This document shows positions 853 through 30,256 of a stretch of 31,996 nt of DNA, piece by piece (position 1 is the first letter of the stretch; each line of letters begins with the position of its first letter). Position numbers and translations under genes: made by a program. The DNA comes from Pseudomonadota bacterium (GTDB taxonomy: Bacteria > Pseudomonadota > Alphaproteobacteria > Micropepsales > Micropepsaceae), in the NCBI GenBank assembly GCA_021808875.1, contig JAKBAU010000009.1:1-31996 (forward strand), written 5' to 3'. Below the pieces are notes generated by a model. That model ran no database searches. It was not told where the DNA came from and worked only from the letters and a program-made list of their open reading frames with translations.

Positions 853-2442
853 TCAAGCCCGGCCCAAATTTGCGCCTGCTGGCAGTTCACGATGCAGCGC
901 CGCCGCTAGTTCAACGCAAAGATGGAGAACCGCATACGCTGTGCCAGGATCGATGCGAGCCCCTTCCTGATGTTGGCCGAAATCGCCGAAGCCATGAATC
1001 GCATTCATCAAGACATAGGTTTCTTTTGTCACGCGCTTTGCACAAGGAACACTCCGGTCGGTTCCAGTCATAAGATTCAGTAGGCGAACCCGGTGCACTC
1101 CCTGTGGAAACGTCATTTCCCATTCTTCAACCCTTCGTTCCTCGTTCCGTTTCCAAATCGCCATCCACTGGGAGGGAATTCGCTTTTCGGGTAGCTCCGC
1201 CTTCCAAATTAGATCAAATGATTGATTCACGATGCCGCGGACGTTGCTCAAGAACACTTCAGGATGGTCAGGTAGATCTTCGGTTCCACGCTCCAGGTAG
1301 CGCCGTAAGGTCAAATCAATGCCACTGAGCTGTCCGATCCTACGCTCCAAGACACCCTTGAGGTTCCTCTGAAAGCCCTCCTCGGTACCGAACAATCGCA
1401 TCAGGGTAATGCCCTCATGCGGTTGTTCTTCTAAAAATCTGGCCAGCATGCGGTTCGGTCTCTGAAGCTTGTTTGCCACAGAGTGGACGAAGCCCCGCTC
1501 AATCAACATCTCTGCATCTGCTGCGGGAATACCATTACGGGCCACAACCCCCTGCTCCAGCACAAGCCTCAGAAGATCTTGTGAGGAAGGTGGGCAATCA
1601 ATCCAGAGCGCATCGATCTTATCGTAGAGCGAAGCAAAAACGCTGCCGCATGCCGCTTTCATCCCATCTGCGCTGACTGGACCTGGCACACCAGAGCCAC
1701 ACAGCTCGTTTAGAATGCCAAGCATCAATACCGGGAAGCCGTTGCTAGCATTCCAGAGTTCCGTTCTAGCGCCCCCCGCCAGATCCAGATTCGAAACCGT
1801 AGACAGGACGGCCGACAGATCATTCTCATCGAAACACCCCACACGTACGGGCGCTGGGTCGAAAATGTTCCAGAAATCGCTTGTTTGAGCATCAGGGTGG
1901 CGAATGAGATCGCGCAAGGTGCGCCGGCTGGCGGTCACCAATCGCAGGCTCGGTTTTAGGGCCAGTTCCCTGAGCTGATCCCAAAGATTACGTGTGAGCT
2001 GGCCATTGGAAAGCGGCTTATCAAAGCCGTCCATAATCGCCAGTACCTTTTTGCCATCGGCCACCAGCAGATCCAGAACTTCAGCGATCTCCTGGTACGG
2101 ATTTCCTTGTGTAATCTCAAGATGCTCAGCGTAGTCACGATGGCTTTGGCTTAGCGCAGAAGAAAGTTCCCGCGCCAAGCGCTGCATGAACAACTCATCC
2201 GTAGCGGGCGTCTGATGGCCTAAATCCAATAGGACAACAGCGGAATATGGCGAATCACTTTGCCGAAATCGGGATGCGAGCGAATGCAGAATGACCGTCT
2301 TGCCTGCAAATCGAGGCCCCACCACCTGCAAGTGATCAGGAACTGCCTTAGTCAAGGCGTTGATCATCCTTTGCAGAACGGTCACCCGCCCTAGCATCGG
2401 CGGCACCGTCGTACCAAGGATTGGGAATCTCTGGTCAGGCAT
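853..2442 (-). CDS. P-loop ATPase (STAND/AAA-like), last gene of the defence operon
   Basis: About 529 residues. The N-terminal half is a P-loop ATPase: Walker A GPRFAGKT (near residue 42-49 from the chosen start), Walker B VLAIMDGFD (near 133-141), a sensor-like LRLVTASRRTLRDL, and an NGFPVLMLG motif. The C-terminal half (about 260-529) is unfamiliar, has no nuclease motif I can see, and may be a helical sensor or adaptor. I chose the ATG at 2442 because GAGGAAGAGA precedes it and it overlaps the upstream stop by 8 bases, implying translational coupling. An in-frame start at 2469 is possible. The ATPase core resembles the one at the C-terminus of the upstream protein (both have a D-x-FDK Walker B), so the two could form a mixed complex. 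The role is inferred only from context. Confidence 0.8.
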   Translation of the reverse strand: MPDQRFPILGTTVPPMLGRVTVLQRMINALTKAVPDHLQVVGPRFAGKTVILHSLASRFRQSDSPYSAVVLLDLGHQTPATDELFMQRLARELSSALSQSHRDYAEHLEITQGNPYQEIAEVLDLLVADGKKVLAIMDGFDKPLSNGQLTRNLWDQLRELALKPSLRLVTASRRTLRDLIRHPDAQTSDFWNIFDPAPVRVGCFDENDLSAVLSTVSNLDLAGGARTELWNASNGFPVLMLGILNELCGSGVPGPVSADGMKAACGSVFASLYDKIDALWIDCPPSSQDLLRLVLEQGVVARNGIPAADAEMLIERGFVHSVANKLQRPNRMLARFLEEQPHEGITLMRLFGTEEGFQRNLKGVLERRIGQLSGIDLTLRRYLERGTEDLPDHPEVFLSNVRGIVNQSFDLIWKAELPEKRIPSQWMAIWKRNEERRVEEWEMTFPQGVHRVRLLNLMTGTDRSVPCAKRVTKETYVLMNAIHGFGDFGQHQEGARIDPGTAYAVLHLCVELAAALHRELPAGANLGRA

Positions 2443-5400
2443 TCTCTTCCTCAGCTTCTGCACGCGCACGGCTGGACACCACGTCGGCGTCTTGTTGTTG
2501 TTCGATCCAATCTGCCATCAGCGGAATGGCAAGGCGGTACTCACCGTCACCAATTTCGCCGGAGAATTCGATCAGTTCGAGTTCCCGGAGATAGGAAAGA
2601 TCTGCGTCTAGCGCTTGGTCGTCTATGTCTACGCCAGATTGCGTCAAATGCTCGTGCAAGGTACCGAAGCTAATCTGGGTCCGTTGCTTAAAGCTCAGCG
2701 CGCAAAGCAGAAGGATCCACTGCCGACGATTTCGGCCGATCTCTGGGCCCAAGCCAGCATAGTCCCACAGGCTCGCAAAATGCTCATTATCCCGCACCAG
2801 TCCGAGAGCCGCATCATTGACGACACTCACGGTGATTGAGCGACTCTTTGTCTGCACGGCATAGTCAAACACGCGGTTACACAAGCACTGCATCAGATAT
2901 GGTTGCCGTGCCGTGATCTCGATTACGCGTCCAATAGCCTCCTGTGAAAAGGTCAGCTGCTCACGTACCGGTTCGGTGATGACTTTACGGGCGCTCTCCA
3001 CATCCAGCGCGGTAACTGGGATACTCGTTCCCAGGCCGTAAAGCGCCGACCAGTATTCCTCGCGCAGACGCTTTAGGCGACGTGATCCTGTCAGGACGGC
3101 TGAAAACTTCGAATAGGTTTGTATCAGAAAGCGAATGTTTTCTGGAACCTGAGGCGACGTAACTCCGTTGTCTATGCCCTCCTGGAGCTTATCGAACTCG
3201 TCCAGCATCAACACCAAGCCCAGGCCCATGGGATCAAGCAGTGACAGCACCAATTCCAGATAATCACGGAAGTCGGCAAACGGAGAATCGCCGCTGATTC
3301 CCTCACGGCATGCCCGCGCGACACCCAGCGCCGGCTTGCCGGCCGCGATCACATGGCCATTGGGCAGCGGCACATCGACGCCGAGCTTTGTCAACGCGGT
3401 TGCGATGCTGCGGGCGATCTCACGGAACACCTCAGCCGTCGGCACGCCCACTACATGCGCCGCCCCTTCTGCTCCTTGCAGGCTTGAATAGACCGCCAAC
3501 CAACCCGGAATGGCCGTGCGCCCTTCCAGGTGCTTGAGGATGGAGGTCTTGCCGGCCCGGCGATTGCCCTCAAGCAGGACCACGTTCCCGTGGGTCGCAA
3601 TCTGGCGGCTGATTTTTCCGATCAGCTCTTCTCGGCCATAGAACACGCTGTGGCCATGCTGTGGCTCCAGCGGGCTTCCGGTCACGTACGGACTTCCACC
3701 CAAATCTGTCGCCAGTGCGGTCGTCGCTTGCTCCGATTCCGCCACCCTTATCGCAAGCTCAATCTCGCCACCGACCGCTTGGGCAGACAACGTTTGCGCC
3801 TGCCAACGCAGCCGCAATGCAAGGTCGCCTCCCTGCTTGGGCACGTCACCACGCAAATTGAGCGTGAACGCTCCTCGCTCAACCAGATACGGCGTCTCGG
3901 CTAGGCCCCAATCGGGCAGCGTGTCGATCCGCACGTTGCGAAGAGGCAAGGCGCCTTGATTTTCCAGTTCAACGGAAAATTCAGCGAAGCTACCTGCCGT
4001 AAGTGACGTGGGCGCAGTTCGAACCTCGATCCCACCCTTGTCGACCAGGTCTGAGATCGCTTCGCGTAACCATATATGTAGGCGTTCAGCGATTCCTCGC
4101 GCCTGCGATTCTGCAGGTAAATGCCCGCTAGTCTGCTCCAACACGGCTTTTATGCCCCGCTCAGCGTCCTGAAGCACATTCAGGAGTCCAGGTCCGGGCG
4201 GGATCTGAGCTACGCCCACCAGCCTTTGCATTGCTTCAGCAAGGGGCATCAACCAGCGAGCCGCATGGTTATCCACTTGGCCATGGGCCGCCCAATTTCG
4301 CGCCGTGCGGATCAGGGCTACGATAGGCTCGAACATGCTGAGCGGCGGAGTGACGTCCAGGCCACCTACGAAGCTTGGAACCCTGCTCCCTAATTCACTC
4401 AACCATGTCGTGAGCCGATTCGATTCGCTGCTTCCCACGGCCTGAGCCAGAAACGCCAGCGCATCAGTACCAAACTCGCGATACTGTGCGGCAGCTCTGG
4501 CTTGCAAAGAAAGGGGCGGCAGAGGCACCGGCAAGCTGTCCAAAACCGGACGATTCAGGTGCTGGATCACCGCCCCGCGCGACTGAGCAGCCAGCCAGTT
4601 CTGGCAAGCTGGACTCGCGAAATAGGCCAGCAGAAACCCCGCGTCCAACCGCTCCTGATTGGTTCGCAGCACATAGAGCCCATTTGCGGCAACCGAACCA
4701 ATGGCTCCATTGCGAACGAGGGCGGACTTTCCGATGGTGCCAGATTTCGAGAGCAGTACATCGCCCGGCAAGAGAGTCCAGCGTTGCTCCTGGCCGGCGA
4801 CATCCGGCCGCAACCAGCTTGATACGCGGCCAACCTTACCCTGGCTCAGATCTTTGATGCGCACGTAGCCCACCGCACGCTCAGACGGTGGCTCATCAAG
4901 CAAATCGGCGGATTTGATGGAGCGGCCGGCAAAAACCTGCGCCACTTCGGACAAGGTCGCCACCGCACCTGAACTTCCCAGAGCCTCCTTAAGGTCGGCT
5001 AAAAGATCATCCAGCCCCCCCTTCTCCCGACGCCTCGGTGACAAGTCCCATTCCGCCGCGGCGAGATCCTCAACACTTACCTCCCAGATCGATCGAGATA
5101 GGGTCCCCGTTTCGGGGGTTCCTTCGGGAATACCTGGGGGGAGTTCTCGCGGCTTACGCAGCTCTGGCTGGCGCATTGCATCCGCCAGTTGTTCCGCGAG
5201 CGCAGCGCGGATTGTGGGTGCCTTGCGTCCCGAGCGTTGCTCAAACAGTGCACTGGCATCGGCCATGCGCACCCGGCCGATGCCACCTCGCTTGCTCAGC
5301 ACCAAAAGGCTGCCCTTGACGCCGGTATGGGGAGCAAACGCCCCCGCAGGAAGGCCAATCACGGCCTCGACCTGGCCCTGCTCAAGCAGATAACGCCGCA

Positions 5401-6424
5401 GCTCCCGCTCGGCCCCGCCACGAAACAGAAACCCCTCGGGAACAGCGATGACCGCTCGGCCGTGGGGTTTGAGTTGTGACAGGGCGTGCTGCACAAACAA
5501 CCCGGTGCTGTCGCTGGTGGCAATGGCGAAATGTGAGTATCGCCAAGGTTCCCGGCTGGTCTTCGCGCCGATGGGTGGATTGGCCAGAACCACATCGAAG
5601 CCTTGCCGCATGGGGCTGCTCAGCGACTCTCGCTCCAGGCTATCGCCCATTTCCAGACGCGGGCTTTCGATGCCCGCCAGAAGCATGCGGGTCAGACCGA
5701 TTAGAAAGGCACTGCTATTGATTTCGATCCCAGCGATTTCAAGCAGGGCGACTGGACGCCGCTTTTCCTGCCGACTTCGCTCGGCCAACTGCCACGCGGC
5801 CACCAGAAAGTTACCGGCGCCGAAACACGGATCATAAACCCGCTCACCAGGTTGTGGATTGGCCAGCGCAGCCACAAGGCGAGCGATCGCGGCGGGCGTG
5901 GCATATTGTCCATCGTGTGCGCTCGCGGTCTCGGTCAGAACCTGATCGAACACCTCGAGCAGCGCACGCCGCTCACTCGGCGTCTCAAACGGCAATTCGC
6001 CGACCCAGCGAACGAGGTCGCTCAGGTAGACAAAATTCACATTCAGAACGCGGTGCAGCGGCGCAGCCAGTACGTGAAGATGGGCAGCCAAGGGATGGGC
6101 AACATCGCCGCGCAGACCATCCAGGTAGCAGGCCAACTCACCCAATCGATCTGCGGTGGCATGCGGTGAATCCAGACGCGCCCAGTGGCGCCATTGCAGC
6201 CATTCCGGTAGGAGCGGTTGGTAGGACCGATCCTCGAAAATTGCCATGGCCTCCTGTTCGGCGTCCTGCAAGTCGGCCCAGCGCAGCAGTAAGAATGCGG
6301 CAAAGACCTCGCGGATAAGGGTGTTGGACTCCCCGATGGACAGGACGCTCGTCAGCGCCGCATCGAGCCCGGCAATCCATTGCGCAGTGCCCTCGCGCAG
6401 AGGTTTATCTTGCACGACGCTCAA
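2435..6424 (-). CDS. Fused N6-adenine methylase, HsdS-like recognition domain and P-loop ATPase
   Basis: A 1,329-residue multidomain protein. Residues about 1-165 resemble the HsdM helical domain. Residues 166-470 are the methylase fold with motif I DPCFGAGNFL (198-207) and motif IV NPPIG (282-286), preceded by QYATP. Residues about 490-645 form an HsdS-type target-recognition domain (LLPGDVLLSKSGTIGKSALV, LPVPLPPL). About 650-800 is helical and 800-895 is beta-rich, Ig/CARDB-like. Residues 910-1,310 form an ATPase with FYGREELIG, Walker A GNRRAGKTSIL (953-963), Walker B LVLMLDEFDK (1070-1079) and QPYLMQ. The apparent TTG start overlaps the hsdS stop (TTGA); a GTG three codons later is an alternative. 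The aromatic residue normally following NPP is isoleucine, which may impair base flipping. It could methylate, or sense unmethylated DNA and signal through the ATPase; this is inference. Confidence 0.85.
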   Translation of the reverse strand: MSVVQDKPLREGTAQWIAGLDAALTSVLSIGESNTLIREVFAAFLLLRWADLQDAEQEAMAIFEDRSYQPLLPEWLQWRHWARLDSPHATADRLGELACYLDGLRGDVAHPLAAHLHVLAAPLHRVLNVNFVYLSDLVRWVGELPFETPSERRALLEVFDQVLTETASAHDGQYATPAAIARLVAALANPQPGERVYDPCFGAGNFLVAAWQLAERSRQEKRRPVALLEIAGIEINSSAFLIGLTRMLLAGIESPRLEMGDSLERESLSSPMRQGFDVVLANPPIGAKTSREPWRYSHFAIATSDSTGLFVQHALSQLKPHGRAVIAVPEGFLFRGGAERELRRYLLEQGQVEAVIGLPAGAFAPHTGVKGSLLVLSKRGGIGRVRMADASALFEQRSGRKAPTIRAALAEQLADAMRQPELRKPRELPPGIPEGTPETGTLSRSIWEVSVEDLAAAEWDLSPRRREKGGLDDLLADLKEALGSSGAVATLSEVAQVFAGRSIKSADLLDEPPSERAVGYVRIKDLSQGKVGRVSSWLRPDVAGQEQRWTLLPGDVLLSKSGTIGKSALVRNGAIGSVAANGLYVLRTNQERLDAGFLLAYFASPACQNWLAAQSRGAVIQHLNRPVLDSLPVPLPPLSLQARAAAQYREFGTDALAFLAQAVGSSESNRLTTWLSELGSRVPSFVGGLDVTPPLSMFEPIVALIRTARNWAAHGQVDNHAARWLMPLAEAMQRLVGVAQIPPGPGLLNVLQDAERGIKAVLEQTSGHLPAESQARGIAERLHIWLREAISDLVDKGGIEVRTAPTSLTAGSFAEFSVELENQGALPLRNVRIDTLPDWGLAETPYLVERGAFTLNLRGDVPKQGGDLALRLRWQAQTLSAQAVGGEIELAIRVAESEQATTALATDLGGSPYVTGSPLEPQHGHSVFYGREELIGKISRQIATHGNVVLLEGNRRAGKTSILKHLEGRTAIPGWLAVYSSLQGAEGAAHVVGVPTAEVFREIARSIATALTKLGVDVPLPNGHVIAAGKPALGVARACREGISGDSPFADFRDYLELVLSLLDPMGLGLVLMLDEFDKLQEGIDNGVTSPQVPENIRFLIQTYSKFSAVLTGSRRLKRLREEYWSALYGLGTSIPVTALDVESARKVITEPVREQLTFSQEAIGRVIEITARQPYLMQCLCNRVFDYAVQTKSRSITVSVVNDAALGLVRDNEHFASLWDYAGLGPEIGRNRRQWILLLCALSFKQRTQISFGTLHEHLTQSGVDIDDQALDADLSYLRELELIEFSGEIGDGEYRLAIPLMADWIEQQQDADVVSSRARAEAEEENA

Positions 6425-7638
6425 ATCTCCCCAGCAAACGCTTTGCGGAGGACAGCGCTGCGAAGGGTCGCAATCTCACCAGAGGCACATTCAGCTGCTA
6501 AGCCACGAATAAGTAGGTGAGCGGCATCCAGACGGCCGATGATTTGCGATTGCTTATCGAGCGAAGGCACAGGAATGCTAACTTCCCGCAGGCGCTCGCC
6601 AGATATTTTCACCATTGTCTGACTTGAACCCAGAGCACGTTCCTTGATCTGCTTGCGCGCGTTGGCGCTGCGCAAGGCATAAGCAAGATAGCGAGGCAGT
6701 ATTTTGGATCTGTCGGCTTTCAGCTTAATGAGCAGGTCGGGATATATCAGGCGTTCGAACGGCCGTTCCTCGGCCACTGCAGCCAAGCCAACCAGCTCAA
6801 TAGTGTTGGCCCGAGACACGAATACATCGCCTGCGTCGATGACAAACTGTCGCGCCACATTCTCAGGAAGCGCAATCGGCTTCTGAAACCCAATCCCTAG
6901 ATCAATGCTACGCACGGCCGTAAGTGTGAGCACGGCACCATCAGCACGGCCTTCAGTATCCTGCGAAATGGATCGACCATTCCGGACGGTGGTAACCAAT
7001 TCACCCACGGCGCGAACCGACCAGTCTTCATTAGCTGTCAGATCAGGATGCAATTCGGACTCTATAAGTGACGCTGACAAATATTTCTGCTGCACAAGTG
7101 AATCTGCGCGGAGGCGCTCAATCTCCTCCACCCGATCAATGCATTCCTTAACGCGCGTGACGATGCGGTGCTGTTCGGGCAGTGGTGGAATGAAAACTTC
7201 GAAATCCTTGAATTTTCCGCGGGGAATTTCGAGGAAAGTCGTCTTGCCCGCCATCTGTATTAGATCGTTAGTATACCGTCCCAACAAAAAAGCGAGGAAC
7301 CACGGGCAAACTTTGTCGGCGTTGGGGGTGAGATTAACAAAGCCTTGGTTGGTCGCACATTCTCTGTCCGTGACAGCGATCTTTCCAATGCTGGCTCGAC
7401 TGGAAAATAACACAGAGCCTGCCGGAATCAGCTTGGCACTGCTGTTCTGCAAACCCATCTCCGTCAATGTCTCGGCGACATCACCTAGACGGATGATTTT
7501 GCCAATCGGCGCTAAGTCCGTGGGCGTAACCCAGGGCAGTTTGCCACCGAAATACGCCGCTTCTGAACGGGGAGGAGTGCCTCCCCCTCGGATCGTGGCA
7601 ATGTCCTCTATCTTGAATTTGGTCCAATTTTCAGGCAT
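6421..7638 (-). CDS. hsdS: Type I restriction-modification specificity subunit HsdS
   Basis: A 405-residue S subunit with the usual two half-repeats. The first target-recognition domain spans about 1-165 and ends in the conserved IPPLPEQHRIV (150-160), followed by a coiled spacer rich in E/R/L. The second spans about 205-385 and ends in IPVPSLDKQSQIIGRL, again followed by a helix ending RSAVLRKAFAGEI, a typical HsdS C-terminus. It reads the bipartite DNA target and positions HsdM and HsdR. It starts six bases after the hsdM stop (TGA-TCG-ATG), and its stop overlaps the start of the next gene, so translation is coupled. Length is normal and both halves look intact. The target sequence cannot be predicted from inspection. 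Confidence 0.95.
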   Translation of the reverse strand: MPENWTKFKIEDIATIRGGGTPPRSEAAYFGGKLPWVTPTDLAPIGKIIRLGDVAETLTEMGLQNSSAKLIPAGSVLFSSRASIGKIAVTDRECATNQGFVNLTPNADKVCPWFLAFLLGRYTNDLIQMAGKTTFLEIPRGKFKDFEVFIPPLPEQHRIVTRVKECIDRVEEIERLRADSLVQQKYLSASLIESELHPDLTANEDWSVRAVGELVTTVRNGRSISQDTEGRADGAVLTLTAVRSIDLGIGFQKPIALPENVARQFVIDAGDVFVSRANTIELVGLAAVAEERPFERLIYPDLLIKLKADRSKILPRYLAYALRSANARKQIKERALGSSQTMVKISGERLREVSIPVPSLDKQSQIIGRLDAAHLLIRGLAAECASGEIATLRSAVLRKAFAGEI

Positions 7639-7641: not shown

Positions 7642-9129
7642 TCAATGCTCCAGCAAATTCTCAAGTTCACTGAGCAAGTCGGTGATCCGATCCTCCTTGG
7701 TCCTGATCAACTGAATAAGGTCCATAGCCGGCCTGTGCTCATAATCATCCACCTTGTTCGGGTTTTTTGCTGAGAGGTCGAAGTCCTTGGCGACAATATC
7801 GGCCAAAGAGACTGTCCATGAATTTTCGCCCTCGACACGGTCTTGCCACTTGGCGAGGAAGTCCGGCAGCTGGTTCCCGGCAATCGGCTTGCGTGTCTGC
7901 TTCAGTTCAAAGCCGTCATTGGTGAGGTCATAATACCAGATAGCTTCGGTGCCCGAGCCATCGAGCACACGGTCAAACAAGATCACATTGGTCTTAACGC
8001 CGGTGTAGGGCAGGAAGCATCCCGCTGGCAGCGAGAGGATGGTGTGCACCTTGAACTGCTCCAGAAGCTCCTTGCGCACCTTCTGATCGGGGCCGCCGCG
8101 AAAGAGAACTCCCTCAGGGATGATTACGGCCGCGCGCCCACCCTTGGCGAGATTGGCCATGATGTGTTGCAGGAACAGGCACTCGGCAGCACTCGACCGC
8201 ACGCGAAAATTGGTTTGGAGTTCCTGCGCCATCTTGCCGCCATAGGGCGGGTTGGCCAGGACAACCTGAAATTTGTCTTTCTCGGAAACGTTATGGTTGT
8301 GCGCCTCCAGAGTATTCGCCAATTCCAGGTTCGCGCCCTCGATGCCATGCAAGATCATGTTCATCGAGCCCAGCAAATATGTGAGCGGCTTGAGCTCCAT
8401 GCCGAAGAACGTCTTGTGCTGCAGCTGATCAAGCTGATTGCCACTGAGCGTGCTGCGGCTGCGCATGTAGTCAGCCGCCTCCCCGAGAAAGCCAGCCGTG
8501 CCAAAGCACGGATCGTACACCCGCTCGCCAGCTTGCGGCTGGACCACCTCCACCATGGCGCGGATGATATGACGCTGGGTGTAAAACTCACCGGCATAGC
8601 CAGCAGAGTCGGCTGCAACGCGCTTGAGGAGGTCCTCGTAGATCTCTGAGAGTACGATGACATCCGTATCGCTTGAAAAGTGCAGCTTGTTCACCTGCTG
8701 CACGACTTTGGCAAAGCCCACGCCACGGCGGCTGTAGTTGCGCACGTTGTCGAAGATGCGGCGGAAGCGCTGTGCCAGGGCGTCGTTGCCCAGGCCCTTG
8801 GCTGGGTCAGGGCTGGTCAGCTTGATCCACAGCTTGCCATCGACGAACTCCAGCATTTCGTCGGGATGGTCGGTATCCTGCGCCCAATTGCTCCAGGCAA
8901 ATTCCCCCGCCAGCCGACGCTCGTATGGCGTATCGTCGAAAGCTGCTTCCTGCTCCTTTCGCGCTTCGGTTTCATCGAAGGCTTTGAGGAAGAACAGCCA
9001 AGCGAGTTGTTCGACGTAGTTGCGTGCGTCCACACCTTCCGCGTTGAGTTGGTCGCAGGCGTTTCTGACGATCTGCTGGACTTCCTGCCGGCGATGGTCG
9101 GCGTTGTTCTGTGCCATTTCGCTTCTCAT
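7642..9129 (-). CDS. hsdM: Type I restriction-modification N6-adenine methylase HsdM
   Basis: A 495-residue M subunit. Residues about 15-165 form the HsdM helical domain (YVEQLAWLFFLKAFDETEAR). The Rossmann methylase follows: GEFYTQR (180-186), motif I DPCFGTAGF (206-214) for SAM binding, and an intact catalytic motif IV NPPYGG (293-298), then IIPEGVLFRGG. The C-terminal helices (DLIQLIRTKEDRITDLLSEL) probably contact HsdS. It methylates adenine in the HsdS target to protect the host. The first ATG (9129) has no clear ribosome site; the fifth codon, also ATG (9117), has GAGAAG just upstream and may be the real start. It lies 22 bases after the hsdR stop, across a perfect palindrome. Confidence 0.95.
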   Translation of the reverse strand: MRSEMAQNNADHRRQEVQQIVRNACDQLNAEGVDARNYVEQLAWLFFLKAFDETEARKEQEAAFDDTPYERRLAGEFAWSNWAQDTDHPDEMLEFVDGKLWIKLTSPDPAKGLGNDALAQRFRRIFDNVRNYSRRGVGFAKVVQQVNKLHFSSDTDVIVLSEIYEDLLKRVAADSAGYAGEFYTQRHIIRAMVEVVQPQAGERVYDPCFGTAGFLGEAADYMRSRSTLSGNQLDQLQHKTFFGMELKPLTYLLGSMNMILHGIEGANLELANTLEAHNHNVSEKDKFQVVLANPPYGGKMAQELQTNFRVRSSAAECLFLQHIMANLAKGGRAAVIIPEGVLFRGGPDQKVRKELLEQFKVHTILSLPAGCFLPYTGVKTNVILFDRVLDGSGTEAIWYYDLTNDGFELKQTRKPIAGNQLPDFLAKWQDRVEGENSWTVSLADIVAKDFDLSAKNPNKVDDYEHRPAMDLIQLIRTKEDRITDLLSELENLLEH

Positions 9130-9151: not shown

Positions 9152-11446
9152 TCACGCGGCCATGGGGATGTAGAGGTGCTGCTTGACCAGTTCGAGATCG
9201 GCCTTCAGCAGAGCCGGGCCGCCATAACGGTTTGTCAGCGTGGTGAAGCTGCCGAATTGTTCTGCGAACTGCGGCGCGCCATAGGTTCGGGCCTGCTCCA
9301 GATCATCGATCCCGAACAGTCCGTAGTGATCCAGCGCGGTTTGCCAGATATGGGTTTTGAAACGCTGGCTTTCAGGTAAGGCAGCCTCGCCGAGGTGATT
9401 TACCAGCCATATCTGGTCTTCGTCCCACAAGCGGTTCGCCCGGTCGACGCGGTTGGGCACGCGCGCCAATTGGAACCCAATCTTGGCCAGGATATCGACG
9501 TCGTCGGCATCCGGAAGATCGAGGAAGTGCCTGAAGGCGGAGGGATAAATGTCGCGATCCCGGAGTGCTTCCCTGAGCTCCTTGCGGCTACTCTTATCAA
9601 TCCAGATGCGCAGCAGCTCATCCATCCCCTTGTGGCTTACGTCCAGGATGAACTCGCGGGATAGTTCGGTGTATTCCTCGAACGGCACTTTGCGGCCGTC
9701 GGCCAAGCAGACGTAACGGTTCTCGGTGGAGATGACCACCGACACGCCGTCGCCGACAGGCTTGGGCGTGGCATCGTCGTCCTTTTTCCCCTTAGACTTG
9801 CTGCTGGTGGAGACGGCTTTCTGCCGATTGGCGGGGTGCCCATCGAACTCGGCATCCTCCAGCTGGCTGGCGCCCGAGTAGTCGAAGATGGTGAAGTATC
9901 GCTTATTGATGTCCTCGCACAGCCGAGTGCCGCGGCCCTTCATCTGCTTGTACAGGATCGCGCTGCGCAACGGCCGCACGAACACCACGTTCTTCACGTC
10001 TGGGGCGTCAAAGCCTGTCGTGAGCAGATCAACCGAAACGGCCACGCGCGGATTGCTTGGGCCAACGACTGCAAAGTTGCGTTCGAGCTGATGGCTGTTC
10101 CGCTCGGCCCGCGTAATGCGGGCAGCATAGTCAGCGTTGCCCGAAAGGCGGCGTAGCTCCTGCGCCATGAAGGCGGCATGGGTGTCGTCCACGCAGAAGA
10201 CGATCGTCTTTTCGTCACGAAGATCATATTTGCCAAGCACCTCCCATAGGTCCTCGGCGATTGCCTTGGTCCGATCCGGCATGCGGATGTCGCGCTCAAA
10301 ATTCGCTGTTGTGTAGCGCCTGCCATCTGGACCGGTGTAACCATCCTGGTCGACGTTGGTGATCCGCTCTTCCAGCAGGTAAGGCACCAGATAGCCGTCT
10401 TCGATGGCCTGCTTGAGGCTGTAGGTGAAAACGGGGTCGCCAAAGTAATGCTGGGTATCGCGGCGCTTTTCCTCGTCCGTCAGCGCGCGAGCACCTTCCT
10501 CGAGCTCACGCGGTGTCGCGGTCAAGCCCAGCTGCAGCGCGCTGCCAAAATGTTCGAGAACCCCAAACCAGTCACCAAATCCAGAACGATAGCACTCGTC
10601 GACGACGACAAGATCAAAGAAATCTTGATCGTAATGCTCGTAAACCTTCTTGCCATCGAGTTCTTCATCTAGGCTCTGGTAATTGGCAAAGAAAACTTTT
10701 CCCACAAGGTGCTGTCCCTGGGCGACGGTCTCTTTGTCAATCTGCACCCGCTCTGCGGCCGAGTAGGCACTGAAAGCGCGGTAAGCCTGATCCTTGAGGC
10801 TGTTTCGGTCGGTCAGGAACAGGACATGCTCGCGCTTGAGCGCCTTACCGTTCAGTAGCTTCCATACCAACTGGAAGATGGTGAAGGTCTTCCCGGTGCC
10901 CGTCGCCATTAGCAACAGCACACGTTCATCGCCCTGCGCAAACTGCCAAAGCGCCTTGTTGATCGCTATGTCCTGGTAGGGCCGAACGGCTTTGCGGGAT
11001 ACCTGATCTAGGTGGTACCCTGCCTGAAAGGCATTTTCCCAGCGCCTCCAGTCGATTGAAACGCCCATGCGGGAGATCAAGTCGTCAGGAGAAGTTGGCG
11101 CCCCCAACGGCTCGAACTCTCCGGTGTCGTTGTCGGTCAATATCCAGTCGTTGCCATTCGAGGCAATCGAGAACCTAACCGCCAACCTGCGGGCGTAACG
11201 GGAAGCTTGCTGCATACCGTCGGCCGCACTTTCGGTCTCGGACTTCGCTTCCAAAACGGCGAGAGGCACCCCCTTATAGCGCAGCAGATAATCCGCAATG
11301 ATCGACTGCGTTTCATCATACATCGCGTCGCCGGTGAGGTTCACACGACCTGTCCCGATGCGCAGTTGTTCCTGCCACGACCAATGGAGCGCCGCCAGTC
11401 GGGGCTCGATCAGCTCTTTGCAGGTTACTCGTTCGTTGCGGGCCAT
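9152..11446 (-). CDS. hsdR: Type I restriction endonuclease HsdR (EcoEI-like)
   Basis: A 764-residue motor and nuclease subunit. The N-terminus has a PD-(D/E)xK nuclease core with candidate residues D52 and the E67-x-K69 of LAVLEAK. A superfamily-2 helicase follows: Walker A ATGTGKT (181-187), motif II DECY (283-286), motif III LTATP (308-312), GFDAPDV (478-484) and motif VI QMKGRGTRL (501-509). The C-terminal 200 residues match the EcoEI R-type domain. It translocates DNA and cuts when HsdS reports an unmethylated target. The usual histidine of the DEAH/DECH box is tyrosine here. It is the first gene after the sigma-54 promoter, with a leader of about 64 bases and an AAGG ribosome site 8 bases before the ATG. 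Confidence 0.95.
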   Translation of the reverse strand: MARNERVTCKELIEPRLAALHWSWQEQLRIGTGRVNLTGDAMYDETQSIIADYLLRYKGVPLAVLEAKSETESAADGMQQASRYARRLAVRFSIASNGNDWILTDNDTGEFEPLGAPTSPDDLISRMGVSIDWRRWENAFQAGYHLDQVSRKAVRPYQDIAINKALWQFAQGDERVLLLMATGTGKTFTIFQLVWKLLNGKALKREHVLFLTDRNSLKDQAYRAFSAYSAAERVQIDKETVAQGQHLVGKVFFANYQSLDEELDGKKVYEHYDQDFFDLVVVDECYRSGFGDWFGVLEHFGSALQLGLTATPRELEEGARALTDEEKRRDTQHYFGDPVFTYSLKQAIEDGYLVPYLLEERITNVDQDGYTGPDGRRYTTANFERDIRMPDRTKAIAEDLWEVLGKYDLRDEKTIVFCVDDTHAAFMAQELRRLSGNADYAARITRAERNSHQLERNFAVVGPSNPRVAVSVDLLTTGFDAPDVKNVVFVRPLRSAILYKQMKGRGTRLCEDINKRYFTIFDYSGASQLEDAEFDGHPANRQKAVSTSSKSKGKKDDDATPKPVGDGVSVVISTENRYVCLADGRKVPFEEYTELSREFILDVSHKGMDELLRIWIDKSSRKELREALRDRDIYPSAFRHFLDLPDADDVDILAKIGFQLARVPNRVDRANRLWDEDQIWLVNHLGEAALPESQRFKTHIWQTALDHYGLFGIDDLEQARTYGAPQFAEQFGSFTTLTNRYGGPALLKADLELVKQHLYIPMAA

Positions 11447-11520
11447 TTGGGGTGCCTTGCCGTCTTACGCTTGCGGGTTTGGGTGTAGATCATAAAATAA
11501 CTTGCGGTCTGAGCATCATC

Positions 11521-11537
11521 AGCAAGGAGCGTGCCAA
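11521..11537 (-). promoter_or_regulatory. Sigma-54 (-24/-12) promoter for the restriction operon
   Basis: On the minus strand the sequence reads TTGGCACG-CTCC-TTGCT. This matches the sigma-54 consensus TGGCACG-N4-TTGCW at every defined position. The conserved GG is at 11535/11534 and the GC at 11523/11522, predicting transcription start near 11510, about 64 bases before the hsdR ATG. It begins directly after the stop codon of the sigma-54 activator gene and points into hsdR. Such promoters are silent without an ATP-hydrolysing activator, and the neighbouring gene encodes one. Confidence 0.92.
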
Positions 11538-13034
11538 CTACCCGGCCTCGTACTTTTGCAGCCAGTTGCTTAGCGTCTGGTAGCTGCCTAGCCCCAGGAG
11601 GCGAGCTGCCTCCGACTTGTTGCCATGGGTCATCCCCATGGCACGCTCTAGGTAGTGGCGCGCAACGTCTCCAATGAGTTCGGGCAGGGAAATCCCTTGA
11701 TCCAGAGGGCGCCCGAGGACCGTCTCCCCTTTGAGGGGAACGGTTACGGCCAACGATGTAGCCACATCCTCCGCCGTTATCGTCTCGCCCGTCGACCAGA
11801 TGCTTGCCCGCAATAGTGCATTGTGTAGCTCCCTAACGTTACCCGGCCAGGGGTGCCTTAGGAGAAGGTTTTTTGCGGAAACGTCCAAATTCTTATGCTG
11901 ATATCCAGGCTGCGTCGCGGCCTCTGCGTTGATGGCGAGCATCATAGAATCAATGAGCAGGGTGAGGTCTCCTTCTCGCTCGCGGAGCGGTGGCAACAAC
12001 AGCACCCCAACAGCAAGCCGATGAAAGAGGTCTTCTCGGAAACGGCCCGCGCTGATCTCTTCGGGCAGCACGCGATTGGTTGCTGCGACAATTCGCACAT
12101 TGATGGCTCTTCCCTTCGTCGCACCTACACGTGTGACTTCTTGCTCCTGCAACACGCGGAGCAAACGGACTTGAGAAGCCAGGGGTAATTCGCCGATCTC
12201 ATCAAGGAACAACGTGCCGCCGTTGGCAGACTCGAAATAGCCTGCACGGGCAGCAGTGGCCCCGGTGAACGCTCCCTTTTCATGCCCGAATAACTCAGAA
12301 TCGACGAGTTCTTGCGGGATGGCGCCGCAGTTAACGGGCACAAAAGGCTGACCTTTTCGGACGCCAGCCTGATGAATTGCCCGCGCGAACAGCTCTTTGC
12401 CCGTTCCTGATTCACCCTGAATCAGCACCGGCACATCCCGCAGGGCCAGGCGGTGGGCCATCGCCACTGTGCGTTTCATGGCGGCGCAGCGATGAATAAT
12501 TGCTGTGAAGGCAGGAGAATCTGGCGGCAGCCCCTGCATAAGGCGCGCAAGTGCGTCATCCGCTTGGCGACCAGGCGAGGGAATGAACTCTGCGGCAAGG
12601 TCAAAGGGAATGTTGACCTCTTTGATTCCATGCTCCCGAGACGTTTCTATCAACTGAGCCGGATAGCGAGTCTTGGCGAGCAGAAGCCAAATGGCCGCCA
12701 TGGCCGGAGTGCCTGGACTAAGATGGAATGTTAGCGATGCCCCGCTTTCTTTTCGTTTTATTTCATCAACAACGTTAACGGCGGCACGGAAAATTTCTTC
12801 GAAGCTGGTGGGAGAGGTAAGCGTCACCTGATGCGCCTCAATGGCGCTGCCTATTTTACCGGAAAGCCACTCAATATACGCCCGCGTCTTCTTCGAATTA
12901 TGGTCAGAAAGCAGATGCACAGATTCGAAGGGGCGCGCAGTCAATGCGCCGAGGATAGGCCCGAGCTCGCCAGTGTCTGGCGCCTCTGATGCCCGCAGAT
13001 CTGTATTGCCGAGCCAAGCCAGAAGAATCGCCAT
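11538..13034 (-). CDS. Sigma-54-dependent activator with CARF-like N-terminal sensor (RtcR-like)
   Basis: A 498-residue enhancer-binding protein. Residues 1-155 look like a CARF/Rossmann sensor: an opening strand ILLAWLGNTDL and the ligand-loop motif HLSPGTPAM (104-112), comparable to the SGGT-type loop of CARF proteins. Residues 180-410 are the AAA+ domain: Walker A GESGTGKE (207-214), GAFTGA (254-259) for sigma-54 contact, Walker B TLFLDEIGE (274-282) and RHPWPGNVREL (393-403). A Fis-type helix-turn-helix (GNKSEAARLLG) ends the protein. There is no receiver domain, so the input is probably a small ligand, as in RtcR, whose CARF domain senses RNA-derived signals. It very likely turns on the downstream restriction operon. 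All ATPase motifs are intact. The ligand is unknown. Confidence 0.9.
   Translation of the reverse strand: MAILLAWLGNTDLRASEAPDTGELGPILGALTARPFESVHLLSDHNSKKTRAYIEWLSGKIGSAIEAHQVTLTSPTSFEEIFRAAVNVVDEIKRKESGASLTFHLSPGTPAMAAIWLLLAKTRYPAQLIETSREHGIKEVNIPFDLAAEFIPSPGRQADDALARLMQGLPPDSPAFTAIIHRCAAMKRTVAMAHRLALRDVPVLIQGESGTGKELFARAIHQAGVRKGQPFVPVNCGAIPQELVDSELFGHEKGAFTGATAARAGYFESANGGTLFLDEIGELPLASQVRLLRVLQEQEVTRVGATKGRAINVRIVAATNRVLPEEISAGRFREDLFHRLAVGVLLLPPLREREGDLTLLIDSMMLAINAEAATQPGYQHKNLDVSAKNLLLRHPWPGNVRELHNALLRASIWSTGETITAEDVATSLAVTVPLKGETVLGRPLDQGISLPELIGDVARHYLERAMGMTHGNKSEAARLLGLGSYQTLSNWLQKYEAG
11621..11643. promoter_or_regulatory. Inverted repeat, candidate enhancer (UAS) for the activator
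   Basis: Perfect 9-bp arms TGCCATGGG (11621-11629) and CCCATGGCA (11635-11643) are separated by 5 bases. The centre is about 122 bp upstream of the start predicted for the sigma-54 promoter, within the 80-150 bp range usual for enhancer sites of sigma-54 activators. It lies inside the codons for the activator's own C-terminal helix-turn-helix, so part of the symmetry could reflect coding. I saw only one copy nearby and no clear IHF site between it and the promoter. Confidence 0.6.
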
Positions 13035-13140: not shown

Positions 13141-13182
13141 AAAAAGCGGCCGACCGAGGGATTGCTCCCCCGGTCGGCCGCC
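13141..13182 (-). terminator. Intrinsic terminator at the end of the prophage late operon
   Basis: On the minus strand, an 11-bp perfect GC-rich stem (arms 13172-13182 and 13147-13157) with a 14-base loop is followed at once by six T residues (13146-13141). It lies just downstream of the last small prophage gene. It should stop phage late transcription before the defence island, insulating the activator gene that begins about 100 bases further on. Confidence 0.88.
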
Positions 13183-13204
13183 TCGTCTCGTTGTGTGCGC
13201 CTGG

Positions 13205-14876: not shown

Positions 14877-15134
14877 TCAGCCGCCGACCACGGTGATGCA
14901 GGCTTGAGCGATGTCCGCCACGCCCGCGCCGGTGCCGACGGTGGCGGCCAGCAGTTGGGCGACGTCGGTAACGCCCAACCCCACGGCGACAGTCGCGACA
15001 CAGGCTTGGTCGACACTGACGATGCCAGCACCGTCGCCCACGCGCGCTATGGCCCCGGCTTCGACGCTGATCCGTCCTGGACCGTCGCCGCTGACAACGA
15101 GGGCGATCTGCCCAACATCGGCGGAGGTCGGCAT
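14877..15134 (-). CDS. 17-residue-repeat protein downstream of a tail fibre
   Basis: An 85-residue protein made almost entirely of five copies of a 17-residue unit, roughly [S/D]-V-x-Q-x-x-x-x-x-V followed by G-x-G-x-G-x-[V/I]. The hydrophobic/glycine alternation suggests a beta-solenoid or other fibrous fold. It starts at an ATG that overlaps the stop of the preceding fibre gene (TGATG), so the two are translationally coupled; an earlier in-frame start lies within that gene. It is probably a tail appendage component or fibre chaperone. The same 17-residue period occurs in two other proteins of this prophage. Confidence 0.7.
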   Translation of the reverse strand: MPTSADVGQIALVVSGDGPGRISVEAGAIARVGDGAGIVSVDQACVATVAVGLGVTDVAQLLAATVGTGAGVADIAQACITVVGG

Positions 15135-16213
15135 CAGGTGGCTTCCAGGCCGAGCTGACACAGATTGACGGTAGAGGGCGTCCAGGCGCCGCCCGCGGGC
15201 GCTTGGTTGAAGGTGGCCGAGAGGTACCAGAAGGCTGCCCCGGTGGTCAGCGCGACCGCCGCGGAGACATCATCGGTGCCGTTGACCCGCGCATGCAGCT
15301 TGAGGCTGCGCGTGCCGGAATCCTCCTTGCGGGCACACGCGGTGACGACAACGCCATCGATGAAGGTCGGCACGCCCGGGAGATCAGTGATGTTGTAGTA
15401 GTCGACGGCCCCTGTCTGACTGGTCGTGTTGTAGATCGTGGTCTGATAGGCCTGCCCATCGACTGACGCCCAATTCGCCTCCGCGCCACCGACACGCGAC
15501 CACTGGGTCTTGTCGCCGACGGCGTTGGGCAGGCTGGTCCAGACCGAACGCGATGGCACCAAGATCGAGGCGATGTCTGACCCATCGGTGGTGTAGGAGA
15601 CGAGATCGTCGACGGTGACGTTCTGACCGCTGCCGCCGATGCCGGCCGAGCCGAAGGTGATGTATTGCAGCGGGAAGCTGACACCCAGCGTGGTCGTGGC
15701 GATGACGGCACCGTTCAACGCCAGGGTTACCCACCCGGAATTCGGATTGCATGACAGCGACAGCCAATACTGCGTGTTGCCGTTGACCGCGTAGGACGCC
15801 GAAGTCGCCAGGACGGCATTGGTTGAGTTCTGGCGAATGCGGACCGTGCCGGTGCTGTCCAGCGTGATCCGCACCCCGTCGGTTCCTTGGGCGCTCGGAT
15901 GGGTCGGCGTCGCCGTGAACAGAAAGACGTTGCCCTCGCCCGAAGGCAGTGACGCCAGATACCAGCCCATGCCGAGGAACCGCGTGCCGACATTCGGCAC
16001 CGACCAGATCACGCCGCTATCGCTGAAGTAGCCGAGGTTCAGCGCCTTGGCGGTAACGCCGACACCCTGGAGAGAGCGCACACCCGAGTTTGTCGAGATG
16101 TTCATGAACTGCGGGTAGATGACCTGGGCGTTCCACGGCTGGGCAATCTGGTTGAGATCGCTGGGCGCCCCGAATTGCTCAAAGCCGCATGCCCATTCCA
16201 GGGTCAGAGCCAA
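15134..16213 (-). CDS. Tail fibre/appendage protein, LamG-like (concanavalin-like)
   Basis: About 359 residues. The central part (WYLASLPSGEGNVFLFTATP, VRITLDSTGTVRIRQNS, QYWLSLSCNPNSGWVTLALN, VTVDDLVSY) is a beta-sandwich of the LamG/concanavalin type common in phage fibres. The last 130 residues carry a second domain, with GVVVTACARKEDSGTRSLKL and GGAWTPSTVNLCQLGLE, shared with two other proteins of the window. I chose a TTG start at 16213 because AGGAG lies 7 bases before it, formed partly by the upstream gene's TAG stop. It probably binds cell-surface glycans or capsid-distal tail parts. Confidence 0.75.
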   Translation of the reverse strand: MALTLEWACGFEQFGAPSDLNQIAQPWNAQVIYPQFMNISTNSGVRSLQGVGVTAKALNLGYFSDSGVIWSVPNVGTRFLGMGWYLASLPSGEGNVFLFTATPTHPSAQGTDGVRITLDSTGTVRIRQNSTNAVLATSASYAVNGNTQYWLSLSCNPNSGWVTLALNGAVIATTTLGVSFPLQYITFGSAGIGGSGQNVTVDDLVSYTTDGSDIASILVPSRSVWTSLPNAVGDKTQWSRVGGAEANWASVDGQAYQTTIYNTTSQTGAVDYYNITDLPGVPTFIDGVVVTACARKEDSGTRSLKLHARVNGTDDVSAAVALTTGAAFWYLSATFNQAPAGGAWTPSTVNLCQLGLEAT

Positions 16214-16223
16214 GACGAATCTC

Positions 16224-16748
16224 CTATGTGATGATCCACAGAACCGGCCGTGCCGCGGCGGCGCCACCGCCGTCGTCGCGCAAGATTTCGATCGCGACTT
16301 GCCCCAGGAAGACGCCGGACGGCCCCTGGCGGAGCACCTCGACGGCCAACTGCGTCAACCAGGCACTGGAGGCGCGATCGGTGATGCCGCGCAGGACCTC
16401 GAGCGAAGCCTGGCCGAGACGCACCGGCGGCGACGTGCTCCACATCGCCTCGATCGCCACCTGTCCGATGCGCGCCGGCACAGCGCCGCCGCGCAACACC
16501 TCGACCGCCATCTGACCGACGATGGCGCTGGACGACTGCGTCGATGTGCCGCGCAGGACCTCGACGACCGCCTGACCGACCCGCACCGGCGGATTGGCAC
16601 CACGAAGCACTTCGACCGCGGCCTGCCCGGTTCGGAGCGTCATCGGCCCGGATCGGAGAACCTCGACGGCAAGCTGGCTCGTCTGAAGGGATGGCTGCGC
16701 GCTCCGCAGGACCTCGACGGTGGCCTGCGAGACGTTCGCGCTGGTCAT
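16224..16748 (-). CDS. Repeat protein with nine VEVLR-type 17-20 residue units
   Basis: A 174-residue protein built from nine units of G-Q-x-A-V-E-V-L-R-[G/S] followed by a 7-residue connector such as ANPPVRV; two connectors are 10 residues long. Ends are a short N-terminus and DDGGGAAAARPVLWIIT. The regular alternation suggests stacked beta strands in a fibre. It lies between two LamG-like fibre genes, overlapping the upstream one by 4 bases (ATGA), so it is probably a tail appendage subunit. I know similar repeats only as uncharacterised phage structural proteins. The repeats are visible in protein but are degenerate in DNA. Confidence 0.75.
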   Translation of the reverse strand: MTSANVSQATVEVLRSAQPSLQTSQLAVEVLRSGPMTLRTGQAAVEVLRGANPPVRVGQAVVEVLRGTSTQSSSAIVGQMAVEVLRGGAVPARIGQVAIEAMWSTSPPVRLGQASLEVLRGITDRASSAWLTQLAVEVLRQGPSGVFLGQVAIEILRDDGGGAAAARPVLWIIT

Positions 16749-18217
16749 GAAGCGATCTTGGCGCCCGCAGTCAGGCTGTTGACGCCACTCGCCGTCCAGG
16801 CGGCGCTCGTGTTTGGATCGTTGTCAAAATCGGCGTTGAGGTAGGTGTAGGACGTGCCCGGTGCCTGCGCGCTGCCGGCCACCTCGGTGGCGCCCGACTT
16901 GAGCTGTAGCGACACTGTCCGCGACCCGCTGTCAGATTTGCGCACCAGCGCCGAGACTTTGACGCCGGCGATATTCGATGGCGTCGAGCTCAGCGAGGGG
17001 AAGCTGTAGCGGTCCTCTTGGCCCACGGTGTTCGAGGCGACGTAGCTGAGGTCGCCACCCGCTTGCGCCTGATTGATCTCGCAGAAGTTCGAAGCAATGC
17101 CAGTGACCGTGCCCCAGATCTGCAAGCTGACCTGCCCGGAACTCATGGAAGGCGCGGTCGAAGGTGCCCCGCTGGAATAGGTGACGCTCGCTGAATAGCC
17201 TGCGCTCGTCGGGTAGCTCGAGTTGTCCTGCCGGGACATGGAGATCGTGGTGTCGCACATGTAGCCGAGCCACACCGCCGTTCCGGCAACAAGCGTCTGG
17301 GCCGTGGTCAGCGGCATGATGATGGTGGTGCCGCTCGTGGCACCCGTGACCTGGGCGCCAGTGGTCAGCAGGGTGCCGGGCGAACCCGCGTTGTCGGCAT
17401 AGACAACGGGCCGGAAATTGGCACTTGCCGCCGAGCCTTGCGGCAGCACACAGACATTGGCGAGCGTGCCCCCGACGCTCGGGATGTATCGGCGCAGGAA
17501 CAGGATGTTGCCGGAGATGCTGCTCGATGAGCCTGCCAGGTTGTAGTAGGCGCCGATCACCCCCTGCCCGGGCGTGAACGACACGGACGCATCGGCGGTC
17601 GGGAACAGCGTCTCCACTCGGCTATCGCCACGCACCGCATTGTTGGTCGTGCCGGTGTTGTCGAACAGATACATGTCATCGAAGTTGCAGGCGTAACCAC
17701 TGAGTGCCACCGTGTTCGCGGAGGCATTGCTGCTGGACTTCAGGTTGCCGGTGCCGGTGAAGACCTGGGCGCCATCCAGCCAGACCGTGTAGGCCCCGGT
17801 GGCCGCGAAGGTCAGGTCCCATTCGACATAGTGCCAGGAATTGGCCGTTATGGCATTCGAGGCGATGGCGATCTGCGTGCCGCCGAGGCCGCCTTGCCAC
17901 GGCACGAGCTTGCCCTGGGGAGTGATGCCGATGGAGCATTGGGTCGTGCCCGCGTCCGAGAACAGGATGCCGCTGTTGTTCGAGAGCGTGCTCTGGATGG
18001 CGACGCCGCCAATGAGCCGTGGATAGTTCGCGGGCAGACTCCGGCTCGCGGTTTGGCCGTAGCCAATCTGCAAGGCGACGCTGCCGGTGAACCGTCCGGC
18101 CACCAGGCCGCCGAAATTGGCGGGCAACCCGGTCCACTCGCCGCCCATCGTCGAGCTGCTCAGGGCGGCGTTGGGCAGACCATACTTGTCGAAGCCGTCC
18201 CAGAAGATCTCAGCCAT
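16745..18217 (-). CDS. Large LamG-like tail fibre/receptor-binding protein
   Basis: A 490-residue protein starting MAEIFWDGFDKYG. Residues about 1-200 form a LamG-like sandwich (SWHYVEWDLTFAATGAYTVW, LDGAQVFTG, CNFDDMYLFDNTGTTNN). About 215-370 is an inserted beta-rich domain (VLPQGSAASANFRPVVYADN; AVWLGYMCDTT). The last 120 residues are the domain shared with two other fibres (GVKVSALVRKSDSGSRTVSL; AAWTASGVNSLTAGAKIA). GAGGT, made partly by the hub gene's stop, lies 6 bases before the ATG. It follows the hub gene directly, the usual place for host-recognition proteins. The inserted middle domain may set receptor specificity. Confidence 0.75.
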   Translation of the reverse strand: MAEIFWDGFDKYGLPNAALSSSTMGGEWTGLPANFGGLVAGRFTGSVALQIGYGQTASRSLPANYPRLIGGVAIQSTLSNNSGILFSDAGTTQCSIGITPQGKLVPWQGGLGGTQIAIASNAITANSWHYVEWDLTFAATGAYTVWLDGAQVFTGTGNLKSSSNASANTVALSGYACNFDDMYLFDNTGTTNNAVRGDSRVETLFPTADASVSFTPGQGVIGAYYNLAGSSSSISGNILFLRRYIPSVGGTLANVCVLPQGSAASANFRPVVYADNAGSPGTLLTTGAQVTGATSGTTIIMPLTTAQTLVAGTAVWLGYMCDTTISMSRQDNSSYPTSAGYSASVTYSSGAPSTAPSMSSGQVSLQIWGTVTGIASNFCEINQAQAGGDLSYVASNTVGQEDRYSFPSLSSTPSNIAGVKVSALVRKSDSGSRTVSLQLKSGATEVAGSAQAPGTSYTYLNADFDNDPNTSAAWTASGVNSLTAGAKIAS

Positions 18218-18220
18218 GGA

Positions 18221-21072: not shown

Positions 21073-21080
21073 GGGTGGTC

Positions 21081-22789: not shown

Positions 22790-22790
22790 G

Positions 22791-23765: not shown

Positions 23766-23768
23766 GGG

Positions 23769-28384: not shown

Positions 28385-28391
28385 CGCTGCC

Positions 28392-30255: not shown

Positions 30256-30256
30256 G

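What the first reader, a model, noticed from the sequence alone, without database searches (positions are those of the whole stretch)
11446..13034. A CARF-like/sigma-54 activator and a consensus-perfect -24/-12 promoter make this restriction operon inducible
Seen: the activator ORF ends at 11538, and one base later TTGGCACG-CTCC-TTGCT reads toward hsdR, matching the sigma-54 consensus at all fixed positions. Walker A, GAFTGA and Walker B are intact. The N-terminus has HLSPGTPAM, a CARF-type loop, and no receiver domain. Known: sigma-54 promoters need such activators, and RtcR uses a CARF sensor to control RNA repair. Inference: a small molecule or RNA signal, perhaps produced during infection, turns on the type I system. 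Restriction genes are normally constitutive, so this control is unusual.
Basis: partly seen in the sequence, partly recalled or inferred. Interest (0 to 1): 0.92.

Follow-up and report, generated by a model that had tools for sequence, protein, structure and literature searches.

The report
Sensor-controlled switch before restriction genes
A bacterial DNA-cutting defence operon sits behind a switch that should turn it up only when a sensor protein detects a signal, and the same switch is found in nearly the same place in front of other defence genes in other bacteria.

Summary
A 498-aa CARF–AAA+–HTH activator (13034–11538, −) is followed at once by TGGCACG-CTCC-TTGCT (11536–11521, −), the only exact σ54 site in the window. 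Then come hsdR, hsdM, hsdS, a 1329-aa methylase/specificity/STAND fusion and a NACHT-like ATPase.

It is more than chance. In 44 loci with this activator, 30 carry a −24/−12 site with at most 2 mismatches near the activator's stop, 27 of them within 25 nt; control windows do so in 141 of 4999 cases. Among loci followed by type I genes it is 23 of 27. The unit is portable: activators 96% identical precede unrelated hsdR genes, with similarity ending at the promoter. rpoN was found in 28 of 30 carrier genomes, the RtcA cyclase that RtcR signalling needs in 2 of 30.

The link itself is not new: RtcR-like CARF activators beside restriction systems were predicted in 2014 and described again in 2024. 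What I did not find in print is the promoter, its fixed placement and the cassette swapping.

The parts
11538..13034 (-). Activator, 498 aa: CARF-type sensor (about residues 1-155), sigma-54 AAA+ domain (179-342, with lid to 429), HTH_8 (459-495)
   Evidence: Pfam; PADLOC RtcR_PspF2 666 bits over residues 2-496; CARF profile matches
11521..11537 (-). Sigma-54 promoter TTGGCACG-CTCC-TTGCT, directly after the activator stop codon
   Evidence: Only exact match in the window; recurs in relatives
11510..11510 (-). Computed transcription start (12 nt after the C of TTGC)
   Evidence: Computed from the promoter; no transcript data
9152..11446 (-). hsdR, 764 aa, EcoAI/EcoEI-like restriction subunit
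   Evidence: Pfam ResIII, HSDR_N, EcoEI_R_C; NF046051 at 514.7 bits, below its cut-off of 550; ATGTGKT and DECYR intact, a D...E-x-K stretch in the N-terminus
7642..9129 (-). hsdM, 495 aa, methylase with NPPY
6421..7638 (-). hsdS, 405 aa, two specificity stretches
2435..6424 (-). Fusion protein, 1329 aa as listed: N6-methylase domain (NPPI), specificity domain, STAND/AAA ATPase
   Evidence: Pfam; relatives of about 1295-1389 aa; motif counts
853..2469 (-). NACHT-like ATPase, 538 aa, GPRFAGKT
   Evidence: Weak Pfam NACHT and NPHP3_N, both below cut-off; Walker A
13143..13184 (-). Strong terminator-like hairpin between the upstream phage-like genes and the activator
   Evidence: Pattern scan
11621..11643 (-). 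Perfect dyad TGCCATGGGGATGACCCATGGCA inside the activator gene; possible enhancer site, not supported statistically
   Evidence: 6 of 60 codon-shuffled versions (0.1) do as well

Best explanation
The activator gene and the promoter at its end form a signal-controlled switch. The CARF domain senses a ligand or partner; the AAA+ ring then forms and drives sigma-54 RNA polymerase at 11536-11521, raising transcription of hsdR-hsdM-hsdS-fusion-ATPase from about 11510. Before the signal, read-through from the co-oriented activator gene probably gives the low expression that keeps host DNA methylated. Shown by sequence: the domains, the promoter, its conserved placement, the exchange of effectors behind it. 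Inferred: ligand binding, sigma-54-dependent transcription, read-through, and that infection is the trigger (the least certain step).
For: Full-length match to a CARF-AAA-HTH model and CARF profile matches in relatives. Exact promoter, unique in the window. Site with at most 2 mismatches in 30 of 44 loci and 23 of 27 type I loci, against 141 of 4999 and 18 of 352 control windows; by clusters of 70% identity the median member passes in 15 of 24. An in-frame start codon of the first gene lies 15-40 nt after the computed start in 22 of 24 type I loci (ATG in 20), against 38% (10%) at random places inside those genes; the window itself, with 64 nt, and L111 are the two exceptions, and the range was chosen after seeing the data. 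Similarity of swapped loci ends at the promoter. rpoN in 28 of 30 carriers. No terminator-like site between activator and hsdR on this strand.
Against: 14 of 44 loci, 4 of them of type I, lack a good site. Generic bEBPs also have such sites after their stops, 15 of 75, though none within 25 nt. No enhancer site was found: dyads 35 against 30.4 expected. Two of 30 carriers gave no rpoN (completeness unknown). No transcript, ligand or fold. The host's own genome is not held, so rpoN in the host is untested.
Confidence: 0.75

Rival explanations
1. The switch is real but answers general RNA or translation damage, as RtcR does, rather than phage infection as such.
For: The sensor is of the RtcR branch. 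RtcR binds tRNA halves ending in cyclic phosphate that accumulate after DNA damage (PMC7790460 passages).
Against: RtcA, required for RtcR signalling, in 2 of 30 carriers and RtcB in 12 of 30. Of 44 loci, 27 are followed by type I genes and others by defence-like genes.
Confidence: 0.3
2. The CARF domain is controlled by a protein of the operon itself, such as the fusion or the ATPase, as RtcAB bind the RtcR CARF; the small-molecule view is wrong.
For: RtcAB bind RtcR CARF and are needed for activation (PMC9650030 abstract). Activator and fusion relatives share contigs more than expected: 23 of 58 against 0.26 (from two lists capped at 120).
Against: The same activator type precedes loci without the fusion or ATPase, and the fusion occurs without the activator in L114.
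Confidence: 0.12
3. Induced suicide: host DNA is unmethylated until the switch fires, so induction of the restriction enzyme kills the infected cell.
For: hsdR comes first and no separate promoter for hsdM-hsdS was seen (gap of 22 nt). Sigma-54 promoters are tightly off without activator (general knowledge).
Against: Co-orientation and no terminator-like site in front of hsdR make basal read-through likely.
Confidence: 0.1
4. The site is a chance match and the operon is constitutive.
For: 14 of 44 related loci lack a good site; the loose pattern is common in the window.
Against: Recurrence far above controls and at a fixed place.
Confidence: 0.04

Closest known systems
CARF-NtrC activators linked to restriction-modification (PMC4012209; PADLOC RtcR_PspF2)
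   Same: Same domain order, same family model, restriction genes next door, predicted sigma-54 activation by infection ligands
   Different: That work, as far as I saw in passages, gives no promoter; here the promoter, its place and its exchange between systems are shown
RtcR and the rtcBA RNA repair operon
   Same: CARF sensor, sigma-54 AAA+ domain, HTH
   Different: No rtc genes in the window; NCBIfam RtcR 328 bits against a cut-off of 650; RtcA in 2 of 30 carriers
RtcR homologues before CoCoNuT and type I RM superoperons (PMC11090510)
   Same: CARF gene first, type I RM directly after it, same strand
   Different: No CoCoNuT in this window by the scans made; the paper's one mention of promoters names no site
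RptR repressor of type I RM (PMC12255303)
   Same: Small regulator gene in front of a type I operon that rises on infection
   Different: A repressor with a TAGCTA site, not a CARF or sigma-54 activator
MADS
   Same: HsdM, HsdS and the fusion resemble MAD2 and MAD5
   Different: Far below the equivalog cut-offs: 96 of 720 and 32 of 400 bits for HsdM and HsdS

Membership tests
RtcR_PspF2 CARF-AAA-HTH (PADLOC) | Full-length match to the family model | tested here: met
   666 bits, residues 2-496 of 498
RtcR_PspF2 CARF-AAA-HTH (PADLOC) | Next to restriction genes | tested here: met
   hsdRMS directly downstream; 27 of 44 relatives by BLAST
CARF superfamily | Sequence profile match of the N-terminal domain to CARF models that lack AAA+ | tested here: met
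   PADLOC Csx1/Csm6 model in 8 of 10 and CARF4 in 8 of 10 domain sequences; Pfam Cas_Csm6_CARF in 2 of 10 and CARF_Card1 in 2 of 10 at E 0.01
CARF superfamily | CARF (Rossmann-like) fold | not testable with these tools
   Structure tool interrupted, then switched off; no CARF chain by sequence profile
CARF superfamily | Basic residue in the loop after strand 4 | tested here: not met
   GTPAM invariant in 49 sequences; PMC4012209 says RtcR-type CARFs mostly lack it, so this fits the RtcR branch rather than expelling it
RtcR proper | NCBIfam RtcR equivalog cut-off | tested here: not met
   328.2 of 650 bits
RtcR proper | Linked rtcBA operon, RtcA in the genome | tested here: not met
   None among the operon proteins scanned; RtcA in 2 of 30 and RtcB in 12 of 30 carriers of relatives; the window's own genome is not held
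Sigma-54 (bEBP) activator | Walker A, GAFTGA, Walker B, HTH | tested here: met
Sigma-54 promoter | GG at -24, GC at -12 with fixed spacing | tested here: met
   Exact match
Sigma-54 promoter | Conserved position in relatives | tested here: met
   Within 25 nt of the stop in 27 of 44 loci and 23 of 27 type I loci
Sigma-54 promoter | Enhancer site upstream | tested here: inconclusive
   No dyad excess
Sigma-54 promoter | Transcription start dependent on rpoN and activator | not testable with these tools
   Needs RNA data
Type I restriction-modification | HsdR, HsdM and HsdS with intact motifs | tested here: met
MADS | MAD2 and MAD5 equivalog cut-offs | tested here: not met

The most novel reading that the evidence does not exclude
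The activator gene with a promoter welded to its stop codon is a portable infection switch that has been plugged in front of unrelated defence effectors (type I RM, TerY-P/CoCoNuT-like genes, MoxR-VWA-DrmA genes). It senses a ligand made without RtcA. Here it turns up a five-gene machine in which a methylase-like protein with an altered catalytic motif (NPPI here, HPPV in a plasmid operon that has no separate hsdM or hsdS) and a conserved specificity domain, fused to a STAND ATPase, acts as a DNA-reading alarm rather than a methylase.
Probability: 0.3. Interest if true: 0.82.

Novelty: new variant of a known kind. Interest (0 to 1): 0.6.

Why it matters
How restriction systems are switched, and what CARF-σ54 sensors outside RNA repair detect, are open questions. 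A base-resolved promoter next to its own activator turns the 2014 prediction into a simple reporter experiment. Effectors exchanged behind one switch give a search key for new defence operons. The rarity of RtcA among carriers suggests that the ligand of this branch is made differently from RtcR's.

Tried and rejected
Enhancer site: dyads in the 210 nt before the activator stop of 27 loci, with codon-shuffled controls, showed no excess (35 against 30.4). Codon conservation in the activator 3' end gave no clear footprint.

The scan of genome contigs with the whole activator returned mostly generic bEBPs; 75 of the other 78 loci became a control set (L013, L029 and L070 left out for short flanks; two of the 75, L022 and L023, may be CARF-type and were kept). 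E. coli: 0 of 5426 genomes hold a match over at least 80% of the activator query. Phage records: 64 with a match, none over 80% of the query. MADS rejected by cut-offs. PDB by sequence: no CARF chain.

Rows dropped before the 44-locus count: L001 and L002 (same places as L113 and L112), L150 (same as L149), the short duplicates L088-L098 and L116-L136. One weak match (G001, E 3.4e-8) was never counted. L101 and L102 are near-copies and both were kept; the clusters correct for this. L111, L147 and L155 have interrupted or truncated activator frames; L111's site was counted from the end of its C-terminal piece.

Corrected while checking: I had set the fusion's conservation against HsdS variability as if two loci showed it; only L111 does (fusion 79%, HsdS 27%), while L139 has 46% and 41%. 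The start-codon spacing is now given with a control, and it is not independent, because the gaps are short.

Literature: the searches showed no report of a mapped σ54 promoter between such an activator and a type I operon. The library lacks most subscription papers; Makarova 2020 was not held and is only recalled.
Full report
WHAT IS THERE. On the minus strand, after phage tail-like genes and a strong terminator-like hairpin (13184–13143), lies a 498-aa activator (13034–11538): a CARF-type sensor, a σ54 AAA+ domain and a Fis-type HTH. Its stop codon is followed at once by TTGGCACG-CTCC-TTGCT; the exact pattern occurs once in the window. Then come hsdR, hsdM, hsdS, a 1329-aa methylase–specificity–STAND fusion and a 538-aa NACHT-like ATPase. 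The gap before hsdR is 91 nt and before hsdM 22 nt; the others are 3 nt or overlaps of 4 and 35 nt.

IS THE PROMOTER MORE THAN CHANCE. Within −60 to +250 nt of the activator stop, 30 of 44 hold a site with at most 2 mismatches and 15 of 44 with at most 1. Controls from the same loci: 141 of 4999 windows, and 18 of 352 windows after other long genes, with at most 2. Grouped at 70% activator identity, the median member passes in 15 of 24 clusters. Misses are 14 of 44: L083, L101, L102, L103, L113, L140, L147, L149, L149b, L153, L154, L155, L156, L157; of these L140 and L157 hold 3-mismatch sites 1 and 7 nt after the stop.

A FIXED PLACE. In 27 of 44 loci the site lies within 25 nt of the stop. 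Among 75 other bEBP loci, 15 have a site but none within 25 nt; theirs lie 95–237 nt away. In 22 of 24 type I loci examined an in-frame start codon of the first gene follows 15–40 nt after the computed start (ATG in 20), against 38% (10%) at random places inside those genes. This range was chosen after seeing the data, short gaps favour it, and 18 of the 24 loci list an earlier in-frame start as well, so it is consistent with the promoter but not independent proof. The window is an exception: its leader is 64 nt and holds an out-of-frame ATG at 11493 (read by eye).

A SWAPPABLE SWITCH. 27 of 44 loci have type I genes downstream by BLAST (L149b only at 3.1 kb, L113 with hsdM first, L146 with a fragmentary hsdR). 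Four have VWA, PP2C, kinase or DUF2357 genes (L081, L083, L107, L108), which I read as TerY-P/CoCoNuT-like from PMC11090510. L087 and L148 have MoxR–VWA genes, and L148 a DrmA homologue. The rest are unassigned or end early. L139 and L137 activators are 96% identical, yet L139 is followed by the window's type of hsdR (77% identical to it), and DNA identity between the two falls from 84–98% to 28–46% right after the activator stop. Conversely L104 has a window-like activator (77%) before an hsdR only 30% alike. The Acinetobacter plasmid L114 carries hsdR, the fusion and the ATPase with no such activator found, no better than a 4-mismatch site, and a WYL gene upstream. So control and effector recombine.

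MECHANISM. rpoN was found in 28 of 30 carriers. RtcR needs RtcA and binds tRNA halves ending in cyclic phosphate (PMC7790460 passages). RtcA was found in 2 and RtcB in 12 of the same 30 carriers; genome completeness is unknown, and the base rate in non-carriers was not measured (RtcA rang in 5 of 14 control genomes, E. coli and four archaea). So the ligand here is probably not RtcA-made; ribonucleases that leave cyclic phosphate directly remain possible. No operon protein matched a nucleotide cyclase in Pfam. No terminator-like site lies between activator and hsdR on this strand, so basal read-through could keep the chromosome methylated; this is inference. No enhancer site was found.

THE EFFECTOR. 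The 120 listed relatives of the fusion (a capped list of the closest) are 68–100% identical to it, the first being the window's own, and its specificity region (residues 501–650) is among the conserved parts. In L111 the fusion is 79% and HsdS 27% identical to the window's, which suggests fixed against variable specificity; L139 (46% and 41%) does not show this contrast. The fourth residue of the catalytic NPPY/F motif is Ile in 107 of 120 and aromatic in 10; it reads NPPW in L139 and HPPV in L114, where no separate hsdM was found in the 32 kb held. Loss of methylation is inferred from general knowledge of the motif, not tested. Activator and fusion are linked: 23 of 58 listed activators on contigs of 12 kb or more share the exact longest-contig length with a listed fusion relative, 0.26 expected.

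WHAT IS KNOWN. PMC4012209 (passages) already says that RtcR-like proteins not linked to rtc genes are often associated with R-M systems and likely act as σ54 activators, their CARF domains perhaps sensing infection ligands. PMC11090510 (passages) places RtcR homologues before type I RM and CoCoNuTs. The family has a PADLOC model. Hence: new variant of a known kind, with a base-resolved and testable switch. Frequency at E 1e-15: 5 of 369, 3 of 199 and 21 of 398 genomes (class, genus and phylum draws), and 1 of 36 and 1 of 5 in two families chosen for a carrier; the fusion was found in 1 of 398 genomes of one family.

Noticed in passing
window 2435-6424 and L114:13962-17933: Methylase-specificity-STAND fusion whose catalytic motif is NPPI here, Ile in 107 of 120 listed relatives, and HPPV in L114.
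   Followed up: partly
L114:11723-19488: hsdR, fusion and ATPase without separate hsdM or hsdS, and a WYL gene upstream, on an Acinetobacter ursingii plasmid that also carries an aminoglycoside resistance gene nearby.
   Followed up: partly
window 15134-31996: Phage tail-like genes (tape measure, tail proteins, DUF2460) on the same strand end just upstream of the activator, so the operon may be cargo of a prophage or prophage remnant.
   Followed up: partly
window 12-440: IS66 transposase remnant beyond the operon's end; short matches to IS66 and nearby plasmid DNA of Methylosinus, Sphingobium and Roseomonas.
   Followed up: no
L084, L109, L110, 9-30 nt after the activator stop: An inverted repeat (such as GGTCCT ... 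AGGACC) overlaps the -12 element; it could be an operator or a hairpin at the transcript's start.
   Followed up: no
L111 (G493): Activator, hsdR and hsdM frames are interrupted, and in the same genome RtcB lies in three pieces and the RpoN frame is short, so assembly errors are as likely as decay.
   Followed up: partly
window 11425-11493: Out-of-frame short ORF in the predicted hsdR leader that overlaps the hsdR start; read by eye.
   Followed up: no
L149 (G1120:C6): Two such activators lie about 14 kb apart in one genome, neither with a good sigma-54 site after its stop.
   Followed up: no
L113, L156, L103, L154, upstream of the activator: Sites with 1-2 mismatches on the opposite strand upstream of the activator, perhaps divergent promoters; no control was computed.
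   Followed up: no
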